Source of the DNA: Flaviaestuariibacter sp.
GTDB taxonomy: Bacteria; Bacteroidota; Bacteroidia; Chitinophagales; Chitinophagaceae
Reading direction: 5' to 3'
Length of the DNA: 64,000 bases
Assembly (NCBI GenBank): GCA_025963645.1
Contig: JAOQAI010000005.1
Span: 62,001 to 126,000, forward strand
Below are positions 16,917 to 23,529 of the stretch, in pieces. Within the stretch, counting starts at the first letter, position 1. Each line of letters starts with the position of its first letter. The notes under the pieces are model-generated. The model had not been told where the DNA came from, did not search any database, and worked only from the letters and a program-made list of their open reading frames with translations. The translations under genes and the position numbers were made by a program.

Positions 16917-17084
16917 ATGGCACGGTTTAACTATTTGTGGATTTGCTTTATTGCTTTGGCTATGACGCTCACCTCCTGCGAAGTCGTAGGCGGGATTTTT
17001 AAAGCCGGTTTCTGGACGGCTATTATCATTGTTGTTATTGTAGTGTCCTTGATCCTGTGGCTGTTGGGTAAACGTCGCCGTTAG
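16917..17084 (+). CDS. Tiny membrane lipoprotein, conserved in Bacteroidota
   Basis: 55 aa from ATG 16917. An N-terminal hydrophobic stretch ends in a lipobox, LTSC (Cys at about 20), followed by EVVGGIFKAG, a single membrane segment and a basic tail LLGKRRR. Proteins of this size and sequence are often mislabelled phosphatidate cytidylyltransferase; nothing here supports that activity. The longer frame upstream lacks features. It overlaps the stop of the convergent phosphoesterase gene by 4 bp. Confidence 0.75.
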   Translation: MARFNYLWICFIALAMTLTSCEVVGGIFKAGFWTAIIIVVIVVSLILWLLGKRRR

Positions 17085-18925
17085 TCAACCCCCTTCAGCA
17101 AACATATTTTTCCATCCATGGTGGATGCAATAAGCCTTTGGCTATCCAGCACGTTTACGGTATTCACCATGGAATTATCAATCTTGTATTTCCAAACGAG
17201 CTTTTGCCCCAGTGGGTCAATGGCATATACGATCCCATTCCTCGTGCCGAAATAAAGAGTGCCGCTTTTTTCAATAAGCATGGATGGCGCATGTTCATAG
17301 CCATAACCAGCAGGTATTTTCCAGACTTCTGTTTTCTCCCTGCCGGCTTTGAAAGCCACCAATGTATCCTGCATTGTTTTTCCATAGACCCAGCCGCCGT
17401 CTTCCGAGATACCAATACTTTCCCGAACGGTGGCTTCATTGGTTCGCCATAGTGTTTTACCGGAATAAAGATCGATAGCCGTGAAATAACGGTCGGGTGC
17501 TGCGATGTAAACCACGCCATTCCTAACCACTGGAATGCAGGCGGCTGGCGAATAATTGATCACGGACGAGCCATTGCTCCACTTCCATTTTAAGCTCCCG
17601 GTTGTTTTATCCAATGCGTATAAATAGCGGTCCCACGCACCGAAAATGACAAGACTATCAGTGAGTACAGGCTTGCTCGTGATCGGTCCTTCCACACCGC
17701 CAAACTGCCACTTTTCTTTTCCGGTAGCTAAATCAAGAGCCCTGAAATGATGATCGCTCCCCCCGATATAAACTGTTCCATTTTGTACCACGGGAGCACC
17801 AAGCACCGAAGCGCCTGTCGCTGTTTTCCATTTTAGTTTTCCTTTTCCGCTTAAGCAATAAATGGCTCCATCCGCGGAACCAAACACGATATTATCCCCC
17901 GCTGCGGCCGGTGAAGAGAAGACCGGCCCGCCGGTTTGATAACTCCATTTGCGTTTGCCCTTATCCAGGCTTAAGGCTTCTATTAATCCATCCTGGTTTC
18001 CATAAATCACCAGGTTATTTATTACTACAGGAGTGGAGATGACATTAGCGGCAGAACTGTACGTCCACGCCGGTTTTACGGCATTATTATATTGTTGGTT
18101 GACAGAAAAATCAGGACGTGGATACAGCTTTGCTTTATCATATACTTGTTTTTGTAAAGCGATCCCCTTCCATGCCTTTTCTCCCTTCGATACCGGCTTC
18201 CGTTCCGTGAAAAGAATGCTATCCATACGAACATCTACCAGGTTATAACCGCCTTCCGTTGCTTTTGCCCGCAGGTTCGATCGGCCCATGACTGCCGGAA
18301 TGTCTTCGGCTTTTACCGGGCGGTTGTTGTGCCCATGGCCACAAAGCGCCAAAATCGTATTCTTTTCTTTCAGCATATCCACTACCTCGTACCAGTTGTC
18401 CAATCCTTCATCCAGCGGGTAATGATTAAGAAAGACAACGGGCTCATCCGCGCTGATGGCGGCTAATTGCGCCTTCATCCAGTTCATATTGCTGCGGGGC
18501 ACATGCCCGTCGCTCATGCGCACATACGGACCTGAGGCGCAACCGATAAAGTTGATGCCATTATGCTTGAAGAGAAACTTATCGCTGCCAAAGATGGTTG
18601 TAAAGGATAGGCCGCCGCTTTCGCTCCAGCCGGTATCGTGGTTGCCGGGTATGATATAGTATTTAACACGCAGGCTATCAAGTATCTGTTTGGCAAGCGC
18701 TATCTCACGGTTGGTGCCCAGTTCTGTTATATCGCCGGTGATCACCACAAAGGCAATGTCGTTCATGGAATTGATGTCCGCCACTGTCCGGCGCAGGTCT
18801 TCTTCTGCACCGCCGTTTGGAGAACCAATATGCGTATCGCTGATAAAAGCAAAACGGAAAGGAGTGGTTTGCGCCTGAAGAAAGATAGTGGGTAAACAGA
18901 AAGCAAATAGGAGCAGTCGTTTCAT
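17081..18925 (-). CDS. Metallophosphoesterase fused to PQQ-like beta-propeller
   Basis: 614 aa from ATG 18925. Signal peptide (MKRLLLFAFCLPTIFLQAQ), then a calcineurin-like phosphoesterase domain (about 25-270) with AFISDTHIGSP, VVITGDITELG, IPGNHDTGW, VFLNHYP and CGHGHNNRP giving the full di-metal ligand set. Residues about 300-614 form a PQQ/WD40-like propeller with repeated GxxYxxDxxTGxxxWxxxxG blades (LDLATGKEKWQFGG, LDKTTGSLKWKWSNG, IDLYSGKTLWRTNE). Probably a periplasmic or surface hydrolase; its substrate is unknown. Confidence 0.88.
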   Translation of the reverse strand: MKRLLLFAFCLPTIFLQAQTTPFRFAFISDTHIGSPNGGAEEDLRRTVADINSMNDIAFVVITGDITELGTNREIALAKQILDSLRVKYYIIPGNHDTGWSESGGLSFTTIFGSDKFLFKHNGINFIGCASGPYVRMSDGHVPRSNMNWMKAQLAAISADEPVVFLNHYPLDEGLDNWYEVVDMLKEKNTILALCGHGHNNRPVKAEDIPAVMGRSNLRAKATEGGYNLVDVRMDSILFTERKPVSKGEKAWKGIALQKQVYDKAKLYPRPDFSVNQQYNNAVKPAWTYSSAANVISTPVVINNLVIYGNQDGLIEALSLDKGKRKWSYQTGGPVFSSPAAAGDNIVFGSADGAIYCLSGKGKLKWKTATGASVLGAPVVQNGTVYIGGSDHHFRALDLATGKEKWQFGGVEGPITSKPVLTDSLVIFGAWDRYLYALDKTTGSLKWKWSNGSSVINYSPAACIPVVRNGVVYIAAPDRYFTAIDLYSGKTLWRTNEATVRESIGISEDGGWVYGKTMQDTLVAFKAGREKTEVWKIPAGYGYEHAPSMLIEKSGTLYFGTRNGIVYAIDPLGQKLVWKYKIDNSMVNTVNVLDSQRLIASTMDGKICLLKGVD

Positions 18926-18973
18926 GCCAAGATACAACCTAGCACCAGGCCTGCAAAAAGGAAAGAGACTTGC

Positions 18974-19327: not shown

Positions 19328-20185
19328 TTGTTGCACCCTTCCACCATACAACTGCTCCGGCTGCATTTTTCGCTCTTCCTCTTGCCGGTTTATCTCTTTG
19401 CCCTGAGCCAGTTGCCGCAGGTGGAATGGGGCACTGCTATCCTTGTTTTTTTCATCCTGCACGGGCTGGTGTATCCCGCCAGCAATGGCTACAATTCGTA
19501 TATGGACAGGGACAGCTCGCCCATTGGCGGACTGGAGAAGCCTCTGCAGCCCACCCGCCAACTATTCTATGTGTCGGTCGGGATGGATGCGGTGGCGATA
19601 CTCGCTTCTTTCTTTGTCAGCCTGCCCTTCGTAACAGGGATTATTGTTTATATACTCGCGTCGAGGGCTTACAGTTACCGCGGCATCCGGCTCAAGCGCT
19701 TCCCGGTAGCAGGTTTTCTTACCGTGTTTATCTTCCAGGGCGCATTGATTTTTTTCATTACCTATCATGGCTGCCACCCGCAGCAGTCGGTAGATGTTCC
19801 TCTGCTGCCCATGATCCTTTCCAGTCTCCTCATTGGGGCGCTGTACCCGCTTACGCAGGTCTATCAACACGAAGAGGATATAGCGGATGGGGTAACGACC
19901 ATCAGTTACCAGCTTGGCAAGCGGGGCACTTTCCTTTTCAGCATGCTGCAGTTTGTAGCAGCCACGGTGTTGTTCTTTTTTATGTTTCGCCGGCAAGAGG
20001 CGCTGAACCTTTGGTGGATCTATTTGGTTATGCTACTGCCGGCGGTCGGTTTTTTCCTGGCATGGATGGCAAAGGTGTGGAGGGAGGAAACGGCGGCAGA
20101 TTTCAAGCACAGTTTTCGCATGAACCTGCTTGCTACGCTTTGCACCACGGCTTATTTTATTACCCTTAACCTCATAAAGCATTGA
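19328..20185 (+). CDS. UbiA-family prenyltransferase-like membrane protein
   Basis: 285 aa, TTG start. Around eight membrane segments. The first Asp-rich motif is NGYNSYMDRDSSPIGG (N-x3-[Y]-x-D-x-D type, about 57-72) and the second YQHEEDIADGVTTISYQLGK (about 178-197), the UbiA prenyl-diphosphate/Mg sites. UbiA enzymes attach isoprenoid chains to aromatic or other acceptors at the membrane. Its stop overlaps the start of the type III PKS gene (TTGA), so it is the first gene of a coupled four-gene operon and likely prenylates or otherwise modifies the polyketide. Confidence 0.85.
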   Translation: MLHPSTIQLLRLHFSLFLLPVYLFALSQLPQVEWGTAILVFFILHGLVYPASNGYNSYMDRDSSPIGGLEKPLQPTRQLFYVSVGMDAVAILASFFVSLPFVTGIIVYILASRAYSYRGIRLKRFPVAGFLTVFIFQGALIFFITYHGCHPQQSVDVPLLPMILSSLLIGALYPLTQVYQHEEDIADGVTTISYQLGKRGTFLFSMLQFVAATVLFFFMFRRQEALNLWWIYLVMLLPAVGFFLAWMAKVWREETAADFKHSFRMNLLATLCTTAYFITLNLIKH

Positions 20186-21264
20186 GCAAGATTCTTTCGA
20201 TAGGGACCGCACTGCCCGCTTATTGCCATTCCCAAATGGACATTCTCACATTCATGCAACAAGTGTATGCCGCAAACGAAGTGGACAAGCGCAAGATGCG
20301 GTTTCTATATACACAAAGCGGCATTAAGCAACGTTATTCGGTGATAGCGGATTACAGCCGTCCCCTGTCGGAGTGGAAGTTCTACCCGCAAAGTGAAAAC
20401 CTCGAACCCTTTCCCTCCCTGGAACAGCGCATGACGGTTTACAATAAGCAGGCGCCCCTGTTATCGGTAGATGCCGTGCGGGACTGCCTGGATCATAAGC
20501 ATTCGCACAAGGACATCACGCACCTGATAACCGTTAGCTGCACCGGCATGAGCGCACCGGGGCTCGACCTGCAGGTGATGGAACTGCTGGACCTCGAGAA
20601 AGATATATCACGAACCTCCATCAACTTCATGGGTTGCTATGCAGCTATTCATGCACTCAAGCAAGCTGATGCCATCTGCCGGAGTGATGAAAAAGCACAA
20701 GTGCTGATTGTGTGTACGGAACTTTGCACGCTGCACTTTCAGCGCGAGGGCACGATGGATAATATCACTTCCGCCTTATTGTTTGGCGACGGCTCGGCAG
20801 CGGCATTGGTAGTAGGCAATGAGGTGGAAGGAGAAGGCTTGCACCTCGATCATTTTTACAGCGAAGTGATCCCGAAAGGCAAGCGCGACATGGCCTGGGA
20901 GCTTTCTTCCACCGGCTTTCTAATGACGCTCAGCGGCTATATCCCCGATCTTATTGAAGAAGACTTTGCGCCTATCATTTCCCGGGCAATGGCAAAAGAA
21001 GGGGGGGGGATAAATGAAGTAACCGATTGGTGCATACACCCCGGCGGCAAACGGATACTGGAAGCGATTCATAAAAGCCTCGGCTTTGCCAATGGGCAAT
21101 TGGCACATTCCTACGAAGTGCTCAACGAGGTCGGCAATCTTTCTTCCGCCACCATTTTATTTGTGCTGAAACAAAAGCTCGCGGAGAAAAAACCGATGCG
21201 GAAGATGGTGGGTGCCGCCTTTGGCCCGGGCTTGACCGTAGAAACCTTTACTGCACATTACTGA
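20182..21264 (+). CDS. Type III polyketide synthase (chalcone/stilbene synthase family)
   Basis: 360 aa, TTG start overlapping the upstream stop. The catalytic triad is complete: Cys152 in NFMGCYAAIHAL, His286 in WCIHPGGKRI and Asn319 in EVGNLSSATILF. It also has ITVSCTGMSAPGLD (about 112-125) and the C-terminal AAFGPGLTVE loop. Homodimeric enzymes of this type extend an acyl-CoA starter with malonyl-CoA to pyrones or resorcinols; bacterial members often use fatty acyl starters. A run of nine G at 21001-21009 lies just before the His codon. It overlaps the next gene by one base. Confidence 0.93.
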   Translation: MSKILSIGTALPAYCHSQMDILTFMQQVYAANEVDKRKMRFLYTQSGIKQRYSVIADYSRPLSEWKFYPQSENLEPFPSLEQRMTVYNKQAPLLSVDAVRDCLDHKHSHKDITHLITVSCTGMSAPGLDLQVMELLDLEKDISRTSINFMGCYAAIHALKQADAICRSDEKAQVLIVCTELCTLHFQREGTMDNITSALLFGDGSAAALVVGNEVEGEGLHLDHFYSEVIPKGKRDMAWELSSTGFLMTLSGYIPDLIEEDFAPIISRAMAKEGGGINEVTDWCIHPGGKRILEAIHKSLGFANGQLAHSYEVLNEVGNLSSATILFVLKQKLAEKKPMRKMVGAAFGPGLTVETFTAHY

Positions 21265-21965
21265 TGCCGGATTTTGCTAAAAGAAGTGATAGTAAAGAAC
21301 TGCTTGATGGTAATGCTATTCCATTTGAAGACATCCGGCAGAACATGGAGGAGTTGGATGCCATTAACCACCGCTTGGGCGGGCACCGCATTACGATCCT
21401 GGGTGTAAAAGCAATCCTTAAGAAATGGAATAACAGTAGTCCTGTACATGTCGTGGAGATCGGCTGTGGCGGCGGGGATAATTTACGGGTTGTAAAGAAT
21501 TGGGGGGTGCAAAAAGGCTTACAATTTCAGCTGACCGGCATTGACATAAATCCCGAATGCATCCGTTTTGCACAAGAGAAAAAAGGGAACGAGGGCATGC
21601 AATTCATTTGCGCAGATTATAGAGAAGCGGTTTTAACGCACCAGCCCGATATAGTCTTTTCCTCCTTGTTTTGTCATCATTTTACGGACGCAGAATTGGT
21701 AGCGCAATTAACCTGGATGCGGCAAAACAGTAGCCTTGGCTTTTTTATCAATGATCTTCACCGGCATCCACTGGCATACTACTCCATGCAATTTCTTACT
21801 AAAGCTTTTTCTAAAAGTTACCTCGTTAAGAATGATGCGCCCTTGTCTGTAATGCGCGGCTTTAAAAGAAAAGAATGGAAGACTCTTTTAAAAGAAGCAG
21901 GCTTACAAAACACCAATGTGCAATGGCAGTGGGCTTTCCGATGGCTTATCCTATCTTACTCCTGA
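21264..21965 (+). CDS. Class I SAM-dependent methyltransferase (polyketide operon)
   Basis: 233 aa. SAM-binding motif VHVVEIGCGGGDNLRVV (about 55-71), motif II acidic residue in LTGIDINPECI (about 89-99), and FSSLFCHHFTDAELV. By context it methylates a hydroxyl or ring carbon of the polyketide product. Its ATG overlaps the PKS TGA, and its stop is directly followed by the oxidoreductase ATG, so the four genes form one translation unit. Confidence 0.87.
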   Translation: MPDFAKRSDSKELLDGNAIPFEDIRQNMEELDAINHRLGGHRITILGVKAILKKWNNSSPVHVVEIGCGGGDNLRVVKNWGVQKGLQFQLTGIDINPECIRFAQEKKGNEGMQFICADYREAVLTHQPDIVFSSLFCHHFTDAELVAQLTWMRQNSSLGFFINDLHRHPLAYYSMQFLTKAFSKSYLVKNDAPLSVMRGFKRKEWKTLLKEAGLQNTNVQWQWAFRWLILSYS

Positions 21966-23120
21966 ATGGACATCTTACAACCAAAATATGATGTGGCTAT
22001 CGTGGGCGGTGGACTGGCTGGCTTAGCCTGTGCCATTCGGTTGCGTAAAGGTGGCAATTCGGTTGTGCTGTTTGAGAAAGAGGCTTTTCCGTTTCACCGG
22101 GTTTGCGGTGAGTATATCAGTATGGAAAGCTGGGATTTTTTGAAACAGCTTGGCGTACCGTTGGATAGCATGAACCTGCCGAAGATCGATACCTTGCAAT
22201 TAACCGCTCCTAAGGGGACCTCTTTTACAACCCCTTTGCCATTAGGTGGCTTTGGTATCAGCCGCTATACTTTGGATGCATTGCTGGCTGCCAAGGCAAA
22301 AGAATGGGGGGTGCATTTGCTGGAAGAAACAAAAGTAGAAGAGGTGGTTTTTAATGGAGATCATACAGTAAGCTTTACCACAAAAGGCGGCGGCAGGCAA
22401 GAAGTGAACGCAATGGTTTGTTGTGCTGCCTGGGGAAAGCGCAGCAACCTTGATGTAAAATGGAACCGGTCCTTCCTCAGCCGGCAGGATAAGCGATTGC
22501 AAAATTTTGTGGGAATAAAATATCACCTGAAAGCGGATTGGCCGGCAAGTACGATAGGACTGCACAATTTCAAGGATGGGTATTGCGGTATCTCTCGAAT
22601 AGAAGAAGGGAAATACTGCCTTTGTTATATGGTGAAGGCGGATGAACTGAAGTCGCGGCAAGGCGATATAAAGCGCCTGGAGAGGGAAGTGTTAAGCGGG
22701 AACCCGCATCTTAAAAAATTATTGGCTGAAAGTGGAGTATTGGAAGGCTTCCCGGTAACTATTTCGCAGATAAATTTTAGTCCAAAGACATTGGTTGAAA
22801 ACCATGTTTTAATGATCGGCGACGCTGCCGGGATGATCACGCCGCTTTGCGGCAACGGTATGAGTATCGCATTGCATACGGGTAAAATAGCGAGTGATAA
22901 GATTCATCACTTCTTAGCAGGAAAAACAGACCGCGACACCATGGAACGGGATTACGCCAGGGAATGGAAGGGACAGTTTGCAGCACGTTTGAGGCGGGGT
23001 AGATGGTTGCAATGGTTCTTTGGCAGCACAGGGTTAAGCAATGCTTTTGTGGGAGCTTTCAAACGGTTCCCCTTTTTAGCCAGCCCGGTTATCCGTAGTA
23101 CGCATGGGAACCTCTTTTAA
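21966..23120 (+). CDS. FAD-dependent oxidoreductase (geranylgeranyl reductase/monooxygenase-like)
   Basis: 384 aa. N-terminal dinucleotide-binding fold YDVAIVGGGLAGLACAIRL (about 8-26), substrate-side HRVCGEYIS, and the second FAD motif MIGDAAGMITPLCGNGMSIA (about 281-300). The family includes geranylgeranyl reductases and aromatic hydroxylases. In this operon it probably hydroxylates or reduces the product of the type III PKS; a flavin hydroxylase next to a PKS III and a methyltransferase is also the make-up of the srsABC phenolic lipid operon of Streptomyces griseus. Confidence 0.88.
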   Translation: MDILQPKYDVAIVGGGLAGLACAIRLRKGGNSVVLFEKEAFPFHRVCGEYISMESWDFLKQLGVPLDSMNLPKIDTLQLTAPKGTSFTTPLPLGGFGISRYTLDALLAAKAKEWGVHLLEETKVEEVVFNGDHTVSFTTKGGGRQEVNAMVCCAAWGKRSNLDVKWNRSFLSRQDKRLQNFVGIKYHLKADWPASTIGLHNFKDGYCGISRIEEGKYCLCYMVKADELKSRQGDIKRLEREVLSGNPHLKKLLAESGVLEGFPVTISQINFSPKTLVENHVLMIGDAAGMITPLCGNGMSIALHTGKIASDKIHHFLAGKTDRDTMERDYAREWKGQFAARLRRGRWLQWFFGSTGLSNAFVGAFKRFPFLASPVIRSTHGNLF

Positions 23121-23160: not shown

Positions 23161-23529
23161 ATGACGCAAGGTAAAAAGACAGTGGTTTTAGGCGCTTCGG
23201 AAAACCCTTCCCGTTACAGCTATCTGGCCATCCGGAAGCTAACGGCGCACCAGCACCCGGTGGTAGCAGTTGGTAGAAAGAAAGGCAATGTGGCGGGTAT
23301 TGATATTAGTACGGACCAGGTGGCTGCCGAAGACGTTGATACTATTACGCTTTACCTGAATCCAACCAATCAGCAACCTTACTACGATTACATCTTAGGC
23401 CTCAAGCCACGGCGTATCATCTTTAACCCAGGCACCGAAAATGAAGAGTTGATTGAGAGAGCGGAAGCGGCCGGAATTGAACCGGTAATTGCCTGCACCT
23501 TGGTAATGCTGAGTACGGGTCAGTACTAA
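23161..23529 (+). CDS. CoA-binding domain protein
   Basis: 122 aa Rossmann-like CoA_binding_2 domain: KTVVLGASENPSRYSYLAI (about 4-22), VAVGRKKG, and IIFNPGTENEELIERAEAAG. Homologues bind CoA or nucleotide with unknown outcome. It follows the polyketide operon by 40 bp but carries no sign of a role in it. No stop hairpin is seen between them, so co-transcription is possible. Confidence 0.85.
   Translation: MTQGKKTVVLGASENPSRYSYLAIRKLTAHQHPVVAVGRKKGNVAGIDISTDQVAAEDVDTITLYLNPTNQQPYYDYILGLKPRRIIFNPGTENEELIERAEAAGIEPVIACTLVMLSTGQY

What the first reader, a model, noticed from the sequence alone, without database searches (positions are those of the whole stretch)
19328..23120. Four-gene coupled operon: UbiA, type III PKS, methyltransferase, FAD oxidoreductase
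Starts and stops overlap or abut (TTGA at 20182, ATG/TGA at 21264, 21965/21966), so the genes make one translation unit. The PKS keeps Cys152-His286-Asn319. Content parallels srsABC of Streptomyces griseus (PKS III, methyltransferase, flavin hydroxylase for phenolic lipids) plus a membrane prenyltransferase, which predicts a prenylated or membrane-bound alkylresorcinol/pyrone or quinone. I know no characterised product for this exact set.
Basis: partly seen in the sequence, partly recalled or inferred. Interest (0 to 1): 0.65.

Follow-up and report, generated by a model that had tools for sequence, protein, structure and literature searches.

The report
Prenylated phenolic-lipid operon in Bacteroidota
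Four overlapping genes in a Bacteroidota bacterium most likely build a fatty phenol or quinone with an isoprenoid group attached; the set is inherited together in many relatives, and I found no report of its product there.

Summary
The four genes are real, at the stated coordinates and overlaps; the PKS triad C152-H286-N319 is invariant in 27 aligned PKSs, window included. The set is conserved: of the best 80 UbiA relatives in named genome records, 80 have the PKS next to UbiA and 74 the full UbiA-PKS-MT-FAD order. In 395 genomes of the phylum, the 26 with this UbiA are exactly the 26 with the best PKS scores, six of them with the genes apart, so UbiA belongs to the pathway. PKS-MT-FAD is a cross-phylum module homologous to a planctomycete operon of a type whose PKSs made alkylresorcinols (PMC10896814). 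Best reading: alkylresorcinol, methylation, ring hydroxylation, prenylation. Differences: a PHBH/geranylgeranyl-reductase-fold flavoenzyme, and a UbiA subfamily with altered metal motifs (NSxxDxD, QHxxD; 31 of 31). Product, starter, prenyl donor and role are unknown. New variant of a known kind; moderate interest.

The parts
19328..20185 (+). UbiA-superfamily membrane prenyltransferase, subfamily with motifs NSYMDRD (56-62) and YQHEED (179-184)
   Evidence: PF01040 64.1 bits, cutoff 34.2; AlphaFold model pLDDT 96.3, VIA Z 23.1, rmsd 3.4, 269 aligned to AfUbiA-DMAPP 4tq4; alignment A1
20182..21264 (+). type III polyketide synthase, triad C152-H286-N319, TTG start overlapping UbiA by 4 nt
   Evidence: TTG at the homologous codon in 70 of 80 named loci
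21264..21965 (+). class I SAM methyltransferase (best NCBIfam match NF004851 at 125.7 bits, below its cutoff of 243)
21966..23120 (+). FAD oxidoreductase, PHBH/geranylgeranyl-reductase fold, CGE and GDAAG motifs; most likely ring hydroxylase (inferred)

Best explanation
The operon encodes a short meroterpenoid-type lipid pathway. The PKS extends a fatty acyl thioester with malonyl-CoA, most likely three units, to a 5-alkylresorcinol; the MT methylates a hydroxyl or ring carbon; the FAD enzyme hydroxylates the ring to a (methoxy)hydroquinone that can oxidise to a quinone; and the membrane UbiA protein adds an isoprenyl group. The result would be a prenylated phenolic lipid or redox lipid of the cell membrane. 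Shown here: gene content, overlaps, catalytic residues, predicted folds, cross-phylum homology of the PKS-MT-FAD core, and close co-inheritance of UbiA with the PKS. Inferred: every chemical step, their order, and the membrane role.
For: Domains and triad. Of the best 80 UbiA-retrieved named loci, 74 have the whole order and 80 have the PKS next door. 26 of 26 co-occurrence in 395 genomes with no discordant genome, 6 of the 26 unlinked; in 195 family genomes 83 both, 2 PKS only, 2 UbiA only, 108 neither. All UbiA-bearing PKSs of the sample sit in one clade of 39 of 81 rows, SH-aLRT 96, quick tree, midpoint root. PKS and MT are homologous to those of a Paludisphaera (Planctomycetota) MT-FAD-PKS operon (PKS 34%, MT 24%); PKSs of three planctomycetes with such operons or a variant made pentadecyl- and/or heptadecylresorcinols on expression (PMC10896814 passages). 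Of the 80 fetched loci, 18 have PKS, MT and this type of FAD gene in genomes without a strong match to this UbiA, so the flavoenzyme occurs without the prenyl step; in 13 loci its slot holds a PHBH/UbiH-type monooxygenase instead, which fits ring hydroxylation. Agq makes just this product class (PMC3569393 passage).
Against: No product is known. The UbiA subfamily lacks the usual third Asp of motif 1 and has Gln for the first Asp of motif 2, so its chemistry could be unusual. The best NCBIfam match of the flavoenzyme is the geranylgeranyl-reductase superfamily (110.8 bits, below cutoff 158.8), and the closest folds are flavin halogenases (Z 35.5-37.5) ahead of GGR (33.4) and PHBH (about 32). 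MT and FAD are not always linked: L061, L090 and L209 have UbiA-PKS without either nearby; L075 and L093 lack the FAD gene; L087 and L088, with unlinked UbiA, lack MT or both. In PMC10896814 the coexpressed planctomycete genes gave a probable C-methylation and no role for the FAD enzyme was found. A Micromonospora PKS gene with a UbiA gene close by is reported for alkylresorcinols (PMC7587189, title and Table 1 only; I did not check for prenylation there).
Confidence: 0.6

Rival explanations
1. The PKS makes an alkylpyrone or acyl-phloroglucinol rather than an alkylresorcinol; MT, FAD and UbiA decorate that instead.
For: Type III PKSs cannot be assigned to a cyclisation mode from the triad alone (recalled); best PDB sequence match is Steely1 and others include pks18 and styrylpyrone synthase; alkylpyrones are known type III PKS products of myxobacteria (PMC12224551 passage).
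Against: The MT plus flavoenzyme neighbourhood is the one in which planctomycetal PKSs made resorcinols (PMC10896814 passages).
Confidence: 0.2
2. The FAD protein reduces double bonds of the prenyl chain (geranylgeranyl-reductase type), as a dihydrogeranyl group would need, and does not hydroxylate the ring.
For: TIGR02032 is the best NCBIfam hit of the window protein and matches 23 of 23 aligned members; agq products carry a dihydrogeranyl group (PMC3569393 passage).
Against: 18 loci have the same FAD family with PKS and MT in genomes without a strong match to this UbiA; its place is taken by PHBH/UbiH-type hydroxylases in another clade; the window's TIGR02032 score is under the cutoff; the flavin monooxygenase QhpG also matches 23 of 23.
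Confidence: 0.15
3. UbiA is a bystander: it makes menaquinone or another isoprenoid and merely shares the operon.
For: Six genomes carry UbiA and PKS far apart; in the f24 family a distant cousin of UbiA is unlinked and its link to the PKS is uninformative.
Against: Co-occurrence without exception in 395 genomes, unlinked cases included; 83/2/2/108 in 195; two relatives of the same genus have 4 and 5 other UbiA-family genes, so another can serve as MenA. Relatedness inflates P values, but the unlinked cases fall in four family groups.
Confidence: 0.05

Closest known systems
agq cluster, Actinoplanes missouriensis (alkyl-O-dihydrogeranyl-methoxyhydroquinones)
   Same: Type III PKS making alkylresorcinols that are then prenylated (membrane-bound O-prenyltransferase) and hydroxylated; methoxy group in the product (PMC3569393, PMC4044012, PMC10896814 passages).
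   Different: The similar Micromonospora run has an acyl-CoA-dehydrogenase gene (PMC7587189 Table 1), not a PHBH/GGR-fold flavoenzyme.
hidABC (hierridins) and planctomycetal MT-FAD-PKS operons
   Same: Same three-enzyme core; PKS and MT homologous to the Paludisphaera operon, whose FAD protein is matched by the A3 profile at 111.9 bits.
   Different: Gene order MT-oxidoreductase-PKS; in the cyanobacterial survey one cluster, of Raphidiopsis mediterranea, had a prenyltransferase (PMC8086630 passage). HidABC sequences not compared here.
srsABC, Streptomyces griseus
   Different: No UbiA (recalled); sequences not compared here.
Archaeal UbiA homologs ApUbiA/AfUbiA
   Same: Fold: Z 21.5-23.1.
   Different: 16 to 18% identity; Asp motifs altered.

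Membership tests
Type III PKS (chalcone/stilbene synthase superfamily) | N and C domain models over gathering score | tested here: met
   107.7 and 75.7 bits vs 27
Type III PKS (chalcone/stilbene synthase superfamily) | Cys-His-Asn catalytic triad | tested here: met
   C152, H286, N319 invariant in 27 of 27 rows
Alkylresorcinol synthase | long-chain acyl starter and C2-C7 aldol cyclisation | not testable with these tools
   needs enzyme assay
UbiA prenyltransferase superfamily | family model and helical fold | tested here: met
   64.1 vs 34.2 bits; Z 23.1, rmsd 3.4, 269 aligned to 4tq4
UbiA prenyltransferase superfamily | canonical NDxxDxxxD and DxxxD motifs (NxxxDxxxD form in PMC4044012 passage; the rest recalled) | tested here: not met
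   NSxxDxD in 31 of 31 A1 rows and YQH in 31 of 31; Q180 aligned with the first Asp of ApUbiA motif 2. N56, D60, D62 and D184 are kept
agq-type prenylated phenolic lipid cluster | type III PKS, methyltransferase, flavin hydroxylase and UbiA together (methyltransferase and flavin genes of agq recalled) | tested here: met
   gene classes only; hydroxylase role of the FAD gene is inferred
agq-type prenylated phenolic lipid cluster | orthology with AgqA-D | not tested
agq-type prenylated phenolic lipid cluster | product | not testable with these tools
   needs expression and LC-MS
PKS-MT-FAD phenolic-lipid module (hid/planctomycete type) | homologous PKS and MT, flavoenzyme adjacent | tested here: met
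   Paludisphaera, Roseomonas, Sphingobium, Psychrobacter, Deinococcus; in Psychrobacter FAD and MT are on the other strand; the Deinococcus flavoenzyme is of the PHBH-type family A4
Geranylgeranyl reductase family TIGR02032 | curated cutoff 158.8 bits | tested here: not met
   110.8 bits
FADH2-dependent halogenase | WxWxIP motif (recalled) | tested here: not met
   0 of 23 in A3, though halogenases are the closest folds
MenA | curated cutoff 346 bits (NF004750) | tested here: not met
   27.2 bits

The most novel reading that the evidence does not exclude
Many Chitinophagaceae and other Bacteroidota carry a second membrane redox lipid beside menaquinone: a polyketide-derived, prenylated methoxy-quinone made by a UbiA enzyme with a non-canonical metal site (Gln replacing a catalytic Asp), serving as electron carrier or membrane protectant.
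Probability: 0.2. Interest if true: 0.75.

Novelty: new variant of a known kind. Interest (0 to 1): 0.42.

Why it matters
The UbiA-PKS pair was found in 83 of 195 family genomes and 26 of 395 phylum genomes (the samples overlap), so an unnoticed class of prenylated phenolic lipids could be common in Bacteroidota. The closest characterised relative has no known function (PMC10896814 passage), while polyketide quinones in mycobacteria carry electrons and loss of srsA raises beta-lactam sensitivity in S. griseus (same passage). Four genes in tandem make the pathway easy to express and test. The altered but invariant UbiA motif offers a natural test of which metal ligands the family needs.

Tried and rejected
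Considered and set aside: (1) chance cluster, ruled out by conservation; (2) UbiA as MenA or bystander; (3) halogenase, since WxWxIP (recalled) is absent in 23 of 23, although the closest folds are halogenases; (4) FAD as prenyl reductase, disfavoured, not excluded.

Led nowhere: UbiA against plasmids, no match at E 0.01. UbiA against PDB sequences as a single sequence, no match at E 1 (the A1 profile did find 4od4). Around the six unlinked UbiA genes I saw no further pathway gene; hmmsearch gave only two weak MT-like hits (19-22 bits) and seven neighbours of five of the six loci were... checked by Pfam for L223 to L227 only (six proteins; L228 not scanned). Weak UbiA cousins in family f24 versus PKS: 67 both, 18 PKS only, 3 UbiA only, 4 neither of 92, my count of the lists; the PKS is nearly universal there, so this is uninformative. 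Promoter- and terminator-like sites were fewer than in shuffles (sigma-70 consensus, which may not suit Bacteroidota). The structure of the PKS and docking were not attempted.

Literature: searches (0 papers; 5; 0; 1; 14, 12 listed; 33, 15 listed; 2) showed me no description of this operon in Bacteroidota; I judged from titles and abstract starts and opened only PMC10896814, PMC12224551, PMC12565237, PMC4044012 and PMC7587189 among them. The library is open-licence PubMed Central, so absence is weak. Papers were seen as passages only; none was read whole.

Limits of counts: the 80 fetched regions were chosen by me for spread, not drawn at random. The PKS thresholds (294 and 245 bits) were set after seeing the lists; the next PKS score is 283.8, so the phylum cut rests on the UbiA gap (332 versus 160 bits). 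Fisher values (hypergeometric, 69) assume independent genomes, which they are not. UbiA presence for loci of the tree rests at E 1e-20.
Full report
Observation. Searches confirm four same-strand ORFs: UbiA 19328-20185, PKS 20182-21264, MT 21264-21965 and FAD 21966-23120. UbiA and PKS overlap by four bases (TTGA), PKS and MT share one base (TGATG), and FAD starts on the base after the MT stop. Pfam gathering scores are passed by all four. C152, H286 and N319 are invariant in 27 aligned PKSs, window included.

Who carries it. The window lies in a 2.57 Mb, 63% complete assembly. The best named relative of its UbiA is from Flavisolibacter longurius, 68% identical, so the host is inferred to be a Chitinophagaceae bacterium. 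A PKS match at E 0.001 is found in 102 of 195 genomes of the family and 190 of 395 of the phylum, weak hits included.

Conservation of order. Carriers include Niastella, Pinibacter, Segetibacter, Flavihumibacter, Cnuella, Emticicia and Solitalea. Starting from the PKS, 80 regions that I chose for spread show UbiA next to the PKS in 30: tandem in 18, divergent in 12. MT is near in 63 and a FAD gene in 60 of the 80.

Co-inheritance. In the same 395 genomes the UbiA profile A1 gives 26 hits above 330 bits; the next are at 160 bits or less. These 26 genomes are exactly the 26 with the highest PKS scores (294 bits or more). In 20 of 26 the genes are adjacent; in six they are far apart or on different contigs. 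In 195 family genomes: both 83, PKS only 2 (G447, G454), UbiA only 2 (G420 with PKS fragments, G546), neither 108. Relatedness inflates any P value, but unlinked co-retention in four family groups (f2, f8, f9, f10) is hard to explain unless the proteins work together. In the PKS tree (quick method), the 37 rows with UbiA in the genome fall in one clade of 39 rows (SH-aLRT 96) that holds two rows without (L073, L079).

The core is wider than UbiA. PKS-MT-FAD occurs without a strong match to this UbiA in 31 of the 80 fetched loci: 18 with the window type of FAD protein and 13 with a PHBH/UbiH-type monooxygenase in the same slot. The 18 include seven loci with order FAD-MT-PKS. Outside the phylum the core is on plasmids of Roseomonas, Sphingobium, Psychrobacter (FAD and MT on the other strand), Deinococcus and Paludisphaera, with detectable homology of PKS (34-40%) and MT (24-34%); Deinococcus uses the PHBH-type partner. 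These five were picked from 189 plasmid records with a PKS match; two more that I opened (Streptomyces, Paenibacillus) had no gene annotation. Paludisphaera has the MT-FAD-PKS order of planctomycetal and cyanobacterial hidABC operons described in PMC10896814 (passages). There, PKSs from Gimesia, Rhodopirellula and Stieleria made pentadecyl- and/or heptadecylresorcinols in C. glutamicum; coexpressed MT and FAD genes from Gimesia gave a single methylation, probably on carbon, and the FAD role stayed open.

UbiA. The model (pLDDT 96.3) matches AfUbiA with DMAPP at Z 23.1, rmsd 3.4, 269 aligned, and ApUbiA at Z 22.3, rmsd 3.0, 257 aligned. Against ApUbiA, N56, D60 and D62 of motif 1 and D184 of motif 2 are kept; the third Asp of motif 1 is missing and Q180 stands at the first Asp of motif 2. 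NSxxDxD and YQH are present in 31 of 31 rows. Three UbiA paralogues of the genus (L240-L242) have NDYFDxNID and an Asp at the Gln position; others of the twelve paralogues align too poorly to judge. G033 and G487 hold four and five further UbiA-family genes. This is thus a separate subfamily, kept under strong constraint, and likely active. Five cousins from family f24 share NSxWDKD and the Gln but not the His, so the Gln is not unique to this subfamily.

FAD enzyme. Model pLDDT 89.3. Closest folds: FasV (Z 37.5, rmsd 3.2, 363 aligned) and Bmp2 (36.7, 3.0, 360), then 3oz2 GGR-like (33.4, 3.0, 352) and PHBH (about 32). TIGR02032 and QhpG each match 23 of 23 aligned members, TIGR02032 below its cutoff for the window protein. 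The halogenase motif WxWxIP (recalled) is absent in 23 of 23. Because the same FAD type travels with PKS and MT where this UbiA is missing, and is replaced elsewhere by aromatic hydroxylases, ring hydroxylation is the best guess; prenyl reduction remains possible.

Mechanism. Inferred: fatty acyl thioester plus malonyl-CoA to alkylresorcinol; methylation; flavin hydroxylation to a methoxyhydroquinone; prenylation in the membrane. Agq of Actinoplanes missouriensis gives 6-alkyl-4-O-dihydrogeranyl-2-methoxyhydroquinones (PMC3569393 passage), and PMC4044012 mentions its O-prenylating membrane enzyme. A Micromonospora cluster lists UbiA, MT, acyl-CoA dehydrogenase and PKS in a row (PMC7587189 Table 1), which suggests that actinomycetes use a different flavoprotein; Agq orthology itself was not tested. 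One cyanobacterial hid-like cluster also has a prenyltransferase (PMC8086630 passage). Prenylation of type III PKS lipids may therefore have arisen more than once.

Verdict. Real, conserved, and a new variant of a known kind: polyketide phenolic-lipid cluster plus UbiA. The co-inheritance and the odd UbiA site raise the interest; the chemistry is predictable from known parallels, and the product and role need the bench.

Noticed in passing
window 20182; L138-L217: The PKS gene keeps a TTG start at the homologous codon in 70 of 80 named loci (7 ATG, 3 GTG), also in loci where it does not overlap UbiA (L146, L166), whereas the nearest start is ATG for the MT in 65 of 76, UbiA in 50 of 80 and FAD in 46 of 74. 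It overlaps UbiA by 4 or 8 nt in 57 of 80. Possibly tuned or coupled translation.
   Followed up: partly
L229-L233: Family f24, outside the window's class, has an unlinked UbiA cousin with NSxWDKD and a Gln at the motif-2 Asp; a thioredoxin_9 gene is adjacent in L230, L231 and L233 (the neighbours in L229 and L232 were not scanned).
   Followed up: partly
L220 4563-7071: In Sphingobium plasmid pKN1 an acyl carrier protein and a ketoacyl synthase gene precede PKS-MT-FAD, suggesting a dedicated acyl-ACP starter.
   Followed up: no
L077, L080, L130-L133, L136: The FAD-MT-PKS loci share neighbouring ORFs that look by eye like a ketoacyl synthase (7 of 7) and an acyl carrier protein (5 of 7); not scanned.
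   Followed up: no
L127, L128, L129, L134, L135, L137: Six PKS loci without MT or FAD of the window type share an ORF that looks by eye like a membrane ICMT-type methyltransferase, as in BpsAB-like operons (recalled); not scanned.
   Followed up: no
window 23161-23529: A CoA_binding_2 protein gene lies directly downstream; a homologue is within the stretch in 10 of the 80 fetched loci.
   Followed up: no
window 17081-18937: Minus-strand gene joining a calcineurin-like phosphoesterase to a PQQ/BamB-type beta-propeller.
   Followed up: no
L163: A contig labelled Williamsia sp. MAG (an actinomycete name, recalled) carries the operon; probably a mislabelled bin.
   Followed up: no
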